DNA from: Flagellimonas marinaquae
GTDB lineage: Bacteria > Bacteroidota > Bacteroidia > Flavobacteriales > Flavobacteriaceae
Assembly (NCBI RefSeq): GCF_023716465.1
Contig: NZ_CP092415.1
Location: 2,519,501 to 2,583,500 of the forward strand
Direction of reading: 5' to 3'
DNA length: 64,000 nucleotides
In this document: piece after piece, positions 6,180 to 26,991 of the stretch
How positions within the stretch are numbered: the stretch's first letter is position 1
How the letters are laid out: every line of letters begins with the position of its first letter
Translations under genes and position numbers: made by a program
Notes under the pieces: generated by a model
The model's input: only the letters and a program-made list of their open reading frames with translations
What the model was told of the DNA's origin: nothing
Databases searched by the model: none

Positions 6180-6551
6180 CTAGGTTTGTTTGGCTAACCA
6201 TAAACCTAAAACAACCGACAAGATACCAAGGATTATACTGGCCATCATATAAATAGCGAAATTAAGGTAATCGCCACTTTTTAAAAATGTATGCTTTTCA
6301 AAAGCGAATGCGGAGAAAGTGGTAAAGCCACCACAAAAACCTGTGGCCAATAATAGGCTGTTGTTCTCGGAGAGTATATCGCCTTTAGCGGAAAAACCTA
6401 AAACAAGCCCGATGATAAGACAGCCCAAAATATTAACTGTAAAAGTACCGATAAAGAAATTCTGCGAAATGGAATTGAGGGGTTTTGATACTAGATAGCG
6501 CAATACGCTGCCAAATCCTCCTCCTAAAAAAACAAGTAAGGCCTGTTTCAT
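6180..6551 (-). CDS. crcB: Fluoride ion channel CrcB/Fluc
   Basis: A 123-residue protein with four membrane helices, the normal size for Fluc channels, which form dual-topology dimers that export fluoride. Landmarks: GGGFGSVLRYLVSK at residues 10-23, TVNILGC at 38-44, and GFCGGFTTFSAFAFEKH at 71-87, which carries the polar track phenylalanines and the Na-binding region. No fluoride riboswitch is recognisable upstream; the next gene on this strand begins 16 bp away and is a small membrane protein. Confidence 0.95.
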   Translation of the reverse strand: MKQALLVFLGGGFGSVLRYLVSKPLNSISQNFFIGTFTVNILGCLIIGLVLGFSAKGDILSENNSLLLATGFCGGFTTFSAFAFEKHTFLKSGDYLNFAIYMMASIILGILSVVLGLWLAKQT

Positions 6552-6567: not shown

Positions 6568-6747
6568 CTAAACCGCTTTTTTGTATTCGGTTTCTAAAGA
6601 CTCCCGAGGAAAAAGCTTGGTAGTGGTAGATTCGGAAATTTTACGAATCGGTTTTGTAAATGTCTCCTTGGCGCCATTTACGCTGAAAATCAAAAGAATG
6701 GCGTTAATGGTAAGCAATACGAAAAGTATACTAAGAAAAACAGTCAT
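6568..6747 (-). CDS. Small one-helix membrane protein (microprotein family, long member)
   Basis: A 59-residue frame, too short for most gene callers. It begins MTVFLSILFVLLTINAILLI, forming one membrane helix with a buried Asn15, then FSVNGAKE and a basic, serine-rich tail ending KKAV. The first 27 residues align without gaps to two other small frames in this window (26413-26496 and 26568-26654): F at 4, L at 8, LL at 11-12, N at 15, LL at 18-19, SVN at 22-24, and K at 27. A TAnnTTTG box (TACTTTTG, minus, 6783-6776) stands 29 bp before the ATG, which supports expression. Function is unknown. It lies between crcB and another small membrane protein. Confidence 0.75.
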   Translation of the reverse strand: MTVFLSILFVLLTINAILLIFSVNGAKETFTKPIRKISESTTTKLFPRESLETEYKKAV

Positions 6748-6775: not shown

Positions 6776-6783
6776 CAAAAGTA
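6776..6783 (-). promoter_or_regulatory. TAnnTTTG promoter box for the 59-residue membrane protein
   Basis: TACTTTTG on the minus strand, 28 nt upstream of the ATG at 6747. A TTG at 6811-6809 is a possible but widely spaced -33 element. Confidence 0.5.
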
Positions 6784-6864: not shown

Positions 6865-7053
6865 TTAATTTTTGAGAAAAAATTTAATAAGGAACAGTGT
6901 AACTATGAAAATCAGAAAAGAAACAAGAATCCAGATAACACCTTTATAATTTTTTTTGTGTAATTTTTTGTCTTTTCGATAAGAAAGGGAGATAATTGCC
7001 ACAAAAGCAATAAAAAACAAAGCTGCAAAAACAATCTGTCCTGTACTGAACAT
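6865..7053 (-). CDS. Small two-helix membrane protein, unknown function
   Basis: A 62-residue protein. Residues 5-24 (GQIVFAALFFIAFVAIISLS) form one membrane helix. A basic loop RKDKKLHKKNYKG follows, then a second helix at about 40-60. Both ends would lie on the same side, with the basic loop in the cytoplasm. It is not related to the one-helix family next door. Proteins of this shape are common and unnamed in flavobacteria. It starts 39 bp from the divergent pyrophosphohydrolase gene. No function can be assigned. Confidence 0.65.
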   Translation of the reverse strand: MFSTGQIVFAALFFIAFVAIISLSYRKDKKLHKKNYKGVIWILVSFLIFIVTLFLIKFFLKN

Positions 7054-25428: not shown

Positions 25429-26361
25429 ATGCAAGACGGAATCTACGCAAAATTCAATACCACCAAAGGTGAAATTTTGGTAAAACTTACTCACGATAAA
25501 ACACCGGGGACCGTGGGCAATTTTGTTGCACTGGCAGAAGGAAATATGGAGAACAGCGTAAAACCACAGGGCAAACCATATTACGATGGCTTAAAGTTCC
25601 ATAGAGTAATCGCCGATTTTATGATACAGGGCGGATGCCCAACAGGAACAGGGACCGGGGACCCTGGTTATAAGTTTGATGATGAGTTCCATCCCGACCT
25701 TATACATGATGGTCCCGGTGTACTTTCAATGGCCAATGCCGGACCCGGAACCAATGGAAGCCAGTTTTTTATTACCCATGTGGCCACACCTTGGTTGGAC
25801 AACAAGCACACAGTGTTTGGAAAGGTGGCGGAAGGTCAGGATATTGTAGATGCCATTGCACAAGGGGACGCTATAGAAACTTTGGAAATTGTACGAGTTG
25901 GTGAAGAGGCCAAAAAATGGAATGCCATTGAGGCTTTTCGAACGTTCGAGGGAGCCAGGGAAAAACGTATAGCCGAGCAAAAGGCTCAAGCCGAGGCGGA
26001 AATGGAAAAATTGGCTGCAGGTTTTGGAAAGACCGATAGTGGACTACGTTACCAAATTATCCAAAAGGGAAGCGGTTCTAAAGCGGAAAAAGGTAAAACC
26101 GTGTCCGTACATTATGAAGGTGCATTGGCCAACGGTCAGGTTTTTGATTCATCCTACAAAAGAAATCAACCCATAGATTTTGCTCTTGGTGTAGGGCAAG
26201 TAATTCCCGGATGGGACGAGGGTATTGGACTATTGCAAGTAGGGGATAAGGCCAGATTTGTGATTCCATCCCATTTGGCTTATGGTAGCGCAGGAGCCGG
26301 AGGGGTAATTCCTCCCAATGCTACACTGATTTTTGACGTGGAGTTAATGAATGTAAAATAA
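25429..26361 (+). CDS. Dual-domain peptidylprolyl isomerase (cyclophilin-FKBP fusion)
   Basis: A 310-residue protein that joins two unrelated proline isomerases. Residues 1-160 are a cyclophilin: [13 protein letters not shown] with the catalytic Arg, [20 protein letters not shown], and [15 protein letters not shown] charged helical linker (about 165-197, [19 protein letters not shown]) follows. Residues 198-310 are an [45 protein letters not shown] and [14 protein letters not shown]. There is no signal peptide, so it acts in the cytoplasm on protein folding. Such fusions are known as dual-family immunophilins. It has a strong promoter and its own terminator. Confidence 0.96.
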
Positions 26362-26388
26362 AATAATCCTTCTTAGATTATATAGGTG

Positions 26389-26415
26389 AAGCTTCCAGAA
26401 ATGGAAGCTTTTTTA
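26389..26415. terminator. Terminator after the dual immunophilin
   Basis: AAGCTTCCA (26389-26397) / TGGAAGCTT (26402-26410), GAAA tetraloop, followed by T6. The T-run overlaps the stop of the small minus-strand gene. Confidence 0.9.
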
Positions 26416-26496
26416 TTTGGCCCGGTTTACGCTCAATAGCAATAAACAAAAATTAAGGGCAAGCAGAACTAATAGTACGCTAAAAAAAGTGGTCAT
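26413..26496 (-). CDS. 27-residue one-helix microprotein
   Basis: The frame begins MTTFFSVLLVLLALNFCLLL and ends LSVNRAK, stop TAA. It is essentially a single membrane helix with a central Asn15 and a short basic tail. It aligns without gaps to the N-terminus of the 59-residue protein at 6568-6747 and to the 28-residue frame at 26568-26654. The hydrophobic pattern and the SVN.(A/S)K ending are kept while wobble positions vary, which supports coding. No promoter box is seen directly upstream, so it may depend on a transcript shared with its neighbour. Function unknown. Confidence 0.6.
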   Translation of the reverse strand: MTTFFSVLLVLLALNFCLLLLSVNRAK

Positions 26497-26567
26497 GGTT
26501 GTAAGTGTTTATTCCGTAACAATTCAACGTTAAAAAACCCTACCTATTGTCCGTGTTAAAAATTAAG

Positions 26568-26654
26568 CTACTTTTTAGAACCGTTTACACTCCAGGCCAA
26601 TAGTAACGCATTTACGATCAAAAGGAAGGTGAGTACTCCAAAAAAGGTGTTCAT
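26568..26654 (-). CDS. 28-residue one-helix microprotein
   Basis: The frame begins MNTFFGVLTFLLIVNALLLA and ends WSVNGSKK, stop TAG. It lies 71 bp upstream of its sister frame on the same strand. Asn15, the LL pairs and SVNG are shared with the two other members. It would form one short membrane helix with the lysines in the cytoplasm. It lies between the immunophilin and cold-shock genes; no known protein family is recognised. Too short for routine annotation, supported mainly by the three-way similarity. Confidence 0.6.
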   Translation of the reverse strand: MNTFFGVLTFLLIVNALLLAWSVNGSKK

Positions 26655-26745
26655 TGCTATAGGTTTAATGGTTGTGGGGAACAAAGCTTGTTTACCCAAT
26701 AGATAGCAAAAAAGAAAATGGTTGCGTAGGGATTTAAAAAAATAA

Positions 26746-26796: not shown

Positions 26797-26991
26797 TTAT
26801 TCCGCAACTTGTACATTAACGGCGTTTAATCCTTTTTTACCTTGTTGTAGTTCGAATTCTACAACATCACCTTCTCTAATTTCATCGATCAAACCTGAAA
26901 TGTGTACGAAGTGATCTGTGTTTGAACCATCTTCAGTGATAAATCCGTAACCTTTAGAATCATTGAAGAATTTTACTGTTCCTTTACTCAT
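26797..26991 (-). CDS. cspA: Cold-shock domain protein
   Basis: A 64-residue single CSD protein that binds single-stranded nucleic acids. RNP1 is KGYGFITED and RNP2 is DHFVHISGL; the N-terminus GTVKFFNDSKGYGF and the C-terminus QQGKKGLNAVNVQVAE are standard. It acts as an RNA chaperone; whether it is cold-induced is not shown by sequence. It is monocistronic: a TAnnTTTG box lies 30 bp upstream (TACCTTTG, minus, 27028-27021) and a strong terminator follows. Confidence 0.97.
   Translation of the reverse strand: MSKGTVKFFNDSKGYGFITEDGSNTDHFVHISGLIDEIREGDVVEFELQQGKKGLNAVNVQVAE

What the first reader, a model, noticed from the sequence alone, without database searches (positions are those of the whole stretch)
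26413..26654. Tandem pair of 27- and 28-residue membrane microproteins related to a third at 6568-6747
Three unannotated frames share an ungapped pattern: F at 4, L at 8, LL at 11-12, N at 15, LL at 18-19, SVN at 22-24, A/S-K at 26-27. Two are little more than one membrane helix, and the third (59 residues) adds a basic cytoplasmic tail. A polar Asn in mid-helix and a fixed SVN exit sequence suggest helix-helix contact or a membrane partner, not random hydrophobic translation. The pair sits between a folding enzyme and a cold-shock gene. I know of no named family with this pattern.
Basis: partly seen in the sequence, partly recalled or inferred. Interest (0 to 1): 0.75.

Follow-up and report, generated by a model that had tools for sequence, protein, structure and literature searches.

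The report
Stress-switched membrane microproteins of marine flavobacteria
Three tiny related membrane proteins in a marine bacterium look like real, conserved genes; the two side-by-side ones appear to be switched on by two different envelope-sensing regulators while the third looks always on, which points to a small stress-response module that my searches did not find described.

Summary
The 27-, 28- and 59-residue frames behave as protein genes: dN/dS about 0.10-0.18 in the genus, fixed gene neighbourhoods, relatives in 121 of 299 Flavobacteriaceae genomes, and no Pfam, NCBIfam or PDB match at cut-off. Conservation follows one helix face (positions 4, 8, 11, 15, 18, 22, with invariant Asn15 and Ser22), as for a transmembrane heptad contact. 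The larger finding is the promoters: three paralogues, three promoter types. [quoted passage not shown] The 27-mer (A) has GTAGGG-N16-TGTT, the element of an ECF-FecR-TonB-receptor locus. The 59-mer (C) has a housekeeping-type box. In 40 genus genomes, 94 of 99 B-type sites are assigned to the recA region (66) or to microprotein B (28). I infer a membrane module with one constitutive and two stress-induced single-helix subunits that meet through the same face. Expression, sigma identity and partner are untested.

The parts
26568..26654 (-). microprotein B, 28 aa, first gene of the pair
   Evidence: dN/dS 0.10 in the genus
26413..26496 (-). microprotein A, 27 aa, second gene of the pair
   Evidence: dN/dS 0.18 in the genus
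6568..6747 (-). microprotein C, 59 aa: same helix plus a tail ending YKKAV (YK[KE]A[VI] in 31 of 38 aligned)
   Evidence: dN/dS 0.13; AlphaFold helix 2-24, tail low confidence
26700..26727 (-). promoter-like element of B, ACGCAACC-N14-TATCTA (ECF_B type)
   Evidence: strict form 27 of 33 B loci, relaxed form 33 of 33 B, 0 of 33 A, 0 of 36 C; same element at the ECF sigma operon beside recA
26518..26543 (-). promoter-like element of A, GTAGGG-N16-TGTT (ECF_A type), in the gap between B and A
   Evidence: 33 of 33 A loci with spacer exactly 16, 0 of 33 B, 0 of 36 C; same element at fecR and a divergent lipoprotein gene of an ECF locus
6776..6783 (-). TAnnTTTG box (TACTTTTG), housekeeping-type promoter of C
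   Evidence: 33 of 36 C loci against 5.3 in shuffles; sequence; consensus in PMC9723704
26735..26775 (-). region of the terminator hairpin behind the cold-shock gene, separating it from B
   Evidence: fold -21.2 kcal/mol, z -6.4
26385..26425 (-). hairpin region just behind A (stretch folded overlaps its end), weak terminator
   Evidence: fold -12.1 kcal/mol, z -2.3
6180..6551 (-). crcB/fluC, 16 nt downstream of C, conserved neighbour
   Evidence: PF02537; synteny 20 of 20 genus C loci
6865..7053 (-). 62-aa hydrophobic protein upstream of C, conserved neighbour
   Evidence: synteny 20 of 20 genus C loci
26797..26991 (-). cold-shock protein gene, conserved neighbour of the pair
   Evidence: PF00313; 19 of 20 genus pair loci
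25429..26361 (+). cyclophilin-FKBP fusion isomerase gene, conserved neighbour of the pair
   Evidence: PF00160 + PF00254; 20 of 20 genus pair loci

Best explanation
A family of single-span membrane microproteins in which a constitutive member (C, with a tail) and two stress-induced members (B and A, almost tailless) share one oligomerising helix face. Shown here by sequence: the genes are conserved as proteins; each orthologue group keeps its own promoter type; the B element is also that of an ECF sigma operon beside recA whose next gene codes for a membrane protein (ending in a beta-barrel domain in the home genome); the A element is also that of an ECF-FecR-TonB-receptor locus. Inferred: the two ECF sigma factors transcribe B and A when their sensors are triggered; the helix sits N-out/C-in by the positive-inside rule; the 4-8-11-15-18-22 face with Asn15 drives homo- or hetero-assembly, so that B and A join, replace or block C at a common membrane partner and so tune it under stress.
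For: Conservation: 60 of 60 genus genomes, 121 of 299 family genomes, dN/dS 0.10-0.18. Promoters (200 nt upstream): relaxed B element 33 of 33 B, 0 of 33 A, 0 of 36 C; A element 33 of 33 A, 0 of 33 B, 0 of 36 C, spacer always 16; TAnnTTTG 33 of 36 C against 5 of 33 B and 5 of 33 A. Shuffles gave at most 0.08 loci for the relaxed B and the A element. These loci were picked by protein, not by motif; 12 of the 33 are from 12 other genera. Sigma link: B element at 30 of 30 ECF_B loci in the looser scan, 29 of 30 by the strict regex, A element at 0 of 30; A element at 18 of 30 ECF_A-like loci, 9 of 9 of the closest (77% identity or more, home locus included), B element at 0 of 30. Genome-wide, strict B pattern: 3 sites in the home genome against 0 for the reversed control; 99 in 40 genus genomes against 14; 66 assigned to the recA region, 28 to microprotein B, 5 elsewhere. 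Of 13 single-copy relatives 9 have the relaxed B element, 3 the A element, 1 neither, none both. The B link survives loss of synteny in L130 and L142. Helix face: conservation repeats at 100 degrees per residue, 0 of 10000 permutations as strong.
Against: No expression, proteomic or binding data. The elements could be operators rather than sigma sites. Looser patterns are not enriched in the home genome: A pattern 9 hits against 8 reversed and 1 against 1; loose B patterns 2 against 4 and 13 against 19; so the case for A rests on position and conservation. 12 of 30 ECF_A-like loci lack the A element and one of the 18 (L242) has it only about 1.1 kb away. One ECF_B locus (L216) has a loose A-like match; one C locus has a bare ACGCAACC; with uncorrected starts one of 33 A loci scored for the B element. 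The six face positions were chosen after seeing the conservation, so their p of about 1e-5 is flattering. A shared face is compatible with self-assembly only. No partner gene was found. Twenty of the 33 pair loci are genus relatives of the window's and not independent.
Confidence: 0.6

Rival explanations
1. B and A are outputs of the two ECF systems that feed back on them: the microprotein binds the transmembrane segment of its own anti-sigma factor or of the protease that cuts it, to damp or prolong the response.
For: In the genus B is nearly the only place of its element outside the recA region (66 of 99 recA region, 28 B, 5 other), as expected of a dedicated feedback gene. The frames behind ECF_B have a membrane segment in 30 of 30 loci; the FecR protein has a hydrophobic stretch by eye.
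Against: A, B and C share one face, whereas FecR and the barrel protein are unrelated; C is not linked to either ECF element. No co-variation test was made.
Confidence: 0.2
2. They are toxins of type I toxin-antitoxin pairs: short hydrophobic proteins, duplicated in tandem, silenced by an antisense RNA.
For: Size, hydrophobicity and tandem copies.
Against: Fixed neighbours across genera, purifying selection, few copies per genome, separate promoter types. By eye, the conserved non-coding blocks in 14 aligned loci are accounted for by promoters and terminators; antisense promoters were not scanned for.
Confidence: 0.06
3. The elements are binding sites of ordinary transcription factors, and the ECF genes are merely other targets of those factors.
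For: No biochemical proof of sigma recognition.
Against: Two-box form with fixed spacing (16 in 33 of 33 for A), 20-50 nt before the start codon of A and 32-143 nt, median 44, before that of B; placement at two unrelated ECF loci with no cross-over by the strict forms, the usual sign of ECF autoregulation (general knowledge).
Confidence: 0.12
4. The frames are spurious and the conserved thing is an RNA (leader or sRNA).
For: Short frames in gaps with conserved non-coding sequence around them.
Against: dN/dS 0.10-0.18, divergence concentrated at third positions, and the protein pattern is kept where DNA is not.
Confidence: 0.02

Closest known systems
Dma/Das systems (dual membrane-spanning anti-sigma and its ECF21 sigma) of Bacteroides thetaiotaomicron, PMC13088901 (abstract, introduction and passages seen)
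   Same: ECF sigma gene next to a gene for a protein with a short start, one membrane helix and, in the home genome, a C-terminal outer-membrane beta-barrel domain
   Different: Here beside recA with a lipoprotein without Pfam match; the paper reports NigD1 and vesiculation as Das1 output, here the conserved protein target outside the sigma operon is a microprotein. ECF21 membership was not tested.
FecI/FecR-type surface signalling: ECF sigma, FecR anti-sigma, TonB-dependent receptor
   Same: ECF gene, then FecR (PF04773, PF16344), then an overlapping frame with CarbopepD_reg_2 and TonB Plug domains
   Different: The element also precedes a large divergent lipoprotein gene and microprotein A
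Stress-induced small membrane proteins such as AcrZ and MgtS of E. coli (recalled, not looked up)
   Same: One short helix, stress-linked expression, thought to act by binding a larger membrane protein
   Different: No family or structure match found for A, B or C; here a three-member set with three promoter types
Sigma-E-dependent sRNAs MicA and RybB of E. coli (recalled)
   Same: Each ECF element here also precedes one ORF-poor short stretch ending in a hairpin
   Different: Only candidates; no transcription data

Membership tests
Dma/Das (ECF21) system, for the regulator of B | ECF sigma gene adjacent to the anti-sigma gene | tested here: met
   30 of 30 ECF_B loci are followed by a frame of 400 or more codons starting at -1 to +61 nt; ECF domains PF04542/PF08281 in the home protein
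Dma/Das (ECF21) system, for the regulator of B | anti-sigma protein with cytoplasmic start, one inner-membrane helix and a C-terminal outer-membrane beta-barrel | tested here: met
   hydrophobic segment starting at residue 41-53 in 30 of 30; PF13568 at 246-461, 29 bits against a cut-off of 27, in the home protein only; barrel not checked in the other 29; anti-sigma activity not testable
Dma/Das (ECF21) system, for the regulator of B | sigma factor in group ECF21 | not testable with these tools
   no ECF group models at hand
Dma/Das (ECF21) system, for the regulator of B | NigD-like lipoprotein output (reported for Das1; not for Das2) | tested here: inconclusive
   the operon lipoprotein has no Pfam or NCBIfam match; a NigD gene elsewhere was not sought
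FecI/FecR/receptor signalling, for the regulator of A | ECF sigma followed by FecR-domain protein | tested here: met
   PF04773 E 5e-22, PF16344 E 3e-10
FecI/FecR/receptor signalling, for the regulator of A | TonB-dependent receptor gene at the locus | tested here: met
   frame L230:4415-6499 overlaps the end of fecR and runs off the stretch; PF07715 E 9e-7, PF13715 E 2e-12; home genome only
Type I toxin-antitoxin | antisense RNA overlapping the toxin gene | tested here: inconclusive
   no further conserved block seen by eye in 14 aligned loci; no transcript data
Type I toxin-antitoxin | growth arrest on overexpression | not testable with these tools
   needs an experiment
Any named protein family | match over the curated cut-off | tested here: not met
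   Pfam and NCBIfam, three proteins, sub-threshold only; Pfam, 38 sequences of C, one weak match in one member; PDB sequences none at E <= 1 for the C profile

The most novel reading that the evidence does not exclude
A three-paralogue membrane microprotein module in which a constitutive subunit is exchanged, through a transmembrane heptad interface, for one of two tailless subunits, each called up by a different envelope sensor (one spanning both membranes, one coupled to a TonB-dependent receptor), so that one membrane machine is retuned according to which signal is felt. Microprotein B would be the main conserved protein output of a Dma-like sigma system in Flavobacteriaceae.
Probability: 0.3. 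Interest if true: 0.85.

Novelty: new variant of a known kind. Interest (0 to 1): 0.7.

Why it matters
It gives a concrete, nearly single-protein target for a Dma-like ECF system beside recA (a match in 55 of 60 Flavobacteriaceae genomes at E <= 1e-20, 50 of 60 at E <= 1e-50), and short promoter elements that predict its targets. It suggests duplicated microproteins of under 30 residues kept apart by promoter more than by protein sequence, and it makes the question of what a bare helix does in stress directly testable by two deletions and one interaction assay. It also shows how conserved genes of this length can escape annotation.

Tried and rejected
Known families: Pfam, NCBIfam and PDB gave only sub-threshold matches. 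Rfam found nothing at the two candidate sRNA loci or a pair locus. Spread beyond the family: a 52-sequence model in 395 class genomes matched 5 at E <= 0.001, all of the same family; at least nine same-family genomes also gave no match there, so absence elsewhere is weak. The family count (121 of 299 at E <= 0.01) will hold about three chance hits. AlphaFold of C gave one confident helix and a low-confidence tail, no partner information; it was not searched against fold libraries. Type I toxin, leader RNA and transcription-factor readings were considered and rated low.

Missteps: the script stopped with an error after eight loci; one search failed; one search read minus-strand loci in the wrong direction and is superseded. 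One search used wrong coordinates for five of six rows and was replaced. In one search the microprotein positions were typed from the capped list, two of them as placeholders without strand that cannot match; 19 of 99 sites stayed unassigned, of which 6 were settled from loci and 13 by fetching them: in all 10 to the recA-region genes, 4 to microprotein B, 5 elsewhere. The class 'recA-flanking pair' (56 sites) rests on geometry (opposite strands, 0.9-1.7 kb apart); the genes were seen only where a fetched locus reached them.

Full report
Observation. I call them B (26568-26654, 28 aa), A (26413-26496, 27 aa) and C (6568-6747, 59 aa), all on the minus strand. In the home genome only these three score well (E 2.7e-11 or better; the next has E 0.475). 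The window comes from the Muricauda/Allomuricauda/Flagellimonas group, judged by the named relatives of C.

Real genes. A model of the three matched 60 of 60 same-genus genomes, 58 with three or more copies, and 121 of 299 genomes of the family at E <= 0.01. In 20 genus pair loci the isomerase gene adjoins in 20 and the cold-shock gene in 19; in 20 genus C loci the 62-aa frame, crcB and PII adjoin in 20. Of 40 loci from other genera, 22 show the pair or a single copy beside the isomerase gene, 13 show C among its usual neighbours, and 5 show no window neighbour. Pooled dN/dS for genus pairs with pS < 0.55 is 0.10 (B), 0.18 (A) and 0.13 (C), with divergence highest at third positions. These are pooled, non-independent pair counts on very short genes found by protein match, and two C genes of other length were dropped, but all point the same way.

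Helix face. In 52 aligned sequences (three of them the window's) M1, L11, N15 and S22 are invariant and F4 (51), L8 (48) and L18 (49) nearly so. Positions 4, 8, 11, 15, 18, 22 are spaced 4-3-4-3-4 and carry 4.16 bits on average against 2.51 elsewhere in residues 3-24 (permutation p about 1e-5, flattered because the positions were picked after seeing the data); conservation repeats at 100 degrees per residue, with 0 of 10000 permutations as strong. That is the signature of one buried helix face with a polar Asn in the middle. Each protein has a 19-residue stretch of mean hydropathy 2.3-2.9 and AlphaFold gives one confident helix, residues 2-24 of C, with a loose tail. The tail varies but ends YK[KE]A[VI] in 31 of 38 sequences, which I read as a docking end. 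Positive charges lie after the helix, so C-in is likely (inference).

Three promoters. Upstream of B lies ACGCAACC-N14/15-yATCTa: strict form in 27 of 33 B loci, relaxed form in 33 of 33; 0 of 33 A and 0 of 36 C have either (one C locus has the bare octamer). Upstream of A lies GTAGGG-N16-TGTT in 33 of 33 A loci, spacer 16 every time, and in 0 of 33 B and 0 of 36 C. Upstream of C is TAnnTTTG in 33 of 36 (shuffles 5.3; B 5 of 33, A 5 of 33), the housekeeping -7 box of flavobacteria (PMC9723704, section 15 part 1 read, passages). Shuffled sequences gave at most 0.08 loci for the relaxed B and the A element. Thirteen single-copy relatives: 9 B-type by the relaxed form, 3 A-type, 1 neither, none both (all). 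In the earlier count, before start codons were corrected, one A locus scored for the B element. The loci had been chosen by protein only; the 12 pair loci from outside the genus come from 12 genera.

Which sigma. In the home genome the B element also stands before a lipoprotein-ECF sigma operon beside recA. That ECF protein had a match at E <= 1e-20 in 55 of 60 family genomes, 50 of them at E <= 1e-50; the other five are likely paralogues. All 30 loci fetched, the home one included, show the element before the ECF gene or its operon in the looser scan, 29 by the strict regex (L201 differs in one base of the octamer). The next gene codes for a protein with a short start and a membrane segment (30 of 30) and, in the home protein, a C-terminal outer-membrane barrel domain. 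This is the layout of the Dma anti-sigma factors described in Bacteroides (PMC13088901, abstract, introduction and passages seen). The A element stands before fecR and before a divergent lipoprotein gene of another ECF locus, where a TonB-receptor frame follows fecR; it is present in 18 of 30 related loci, including 9 of 9 of the closest (77% identity or more), 8 of those on both sides; L242 among the 18 has it only about 1.1 kb off. By the strict forms there is no cross-over: 0 of 30 ECF_A-like loci have the B element and 0 of 30 ECF_B loci the A element; L216 has a loose A-like match.

Size of the B regulon. In 40 genus genomes the strict B pattern occurs 99 times, its reversed control 14 times; the home genome has 3 against 0. 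I assign 66 sites to the recA region (56 by geometry, 10 by the gene downstream), 28 to microprotein B, 5 elsewhere. The second recA-region site precedes a short, ORF-poor stretch with a strong hairpin before trhO, perhaps an sRNA. Counts of looser patterns in the home genome are no evidence: B 2 against 4 reversed and 13 against 19; A 9 against 8 and 1 against 1.

Reading. The simplest account is that gene duplication gave one constitutive and two stress-driven versions of the same helix, kept apart mainly by promoter. Because the face is common to all three, they probably bind each other or one partner; B and A, almost without a tail, would join, replace or block C. Promoter assignment is well supported, sigma identity is likely, and the action at the membrane is inference. 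A feedback role on the anti-sigma factors is the strongest rival.

Novelty. The literature searches listed no paper on such microproteins or on these two elements; I saw the top 1-15 rows of each, mostly titles and abstract openings, subscription journals are mostly not held, and supplements were not read. Small stress-induced membrane proteins are a known kind, hence 'new variant'.

Noticed in passing
G000:C1:1639578-1639606 (+), L153:1498-1640: B-type element between recA and trhO followed by about 110 nt without a clear frame and a strong hairpin (117 nt fold z -5.6). In 14 aligned copies (two are the same home locus) most share GTACTAACTC and a later AGCTATGAAAA-like block. Candidate stress sRNA. 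In F. psychrophilum yceA/trhO is listed with an SM6 promoter that the authors take as ECF-type (PMC9723704).
   Followed up: partly
G000:C1:252295-252320 (-), L231:2675-2821: A-type element followed by about 70 nt with no ATG frame of 20 or more codons listed on that strand (one 38-codon TTG frame) and a strong terminator between a bshC-like and a phosphoglucomutase-like gene (names recalled); candidate second stress sRNA, fold z -2.8.
   Followed up: partly
L190:3476-3919 (-): Lipoprotein in front of the recA-linked ECF gene has no Pfam or NCBIfam match, yet similar frames recur in many family loci.
   Followed up: partly
L230:1082-2839 (-): A 585-residue lipoprotein divergent from the ECF/FecR pair, repetitive by eye, with no Pfam or NCBIfam match.
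   Followed up: no
window 6865-7053 (-): 62-residue hydrophobic protein upstream of C in 20 of 20 genus C loci, below cut-off in Pfam; possible partner of C.
   Followed up: no
L160 and L175: Two other home-genome ECF genes have CAACC-N16/17-GTCT[AT] sites 50-60 nt upstream, so related ECF promoters may be common here.
   Followed up: no
L130, L142: Relatives outside the usual neighbourhood, with Cys in place of Val after the invariant Ser, still carry the B-type element.
   Followed up: partly
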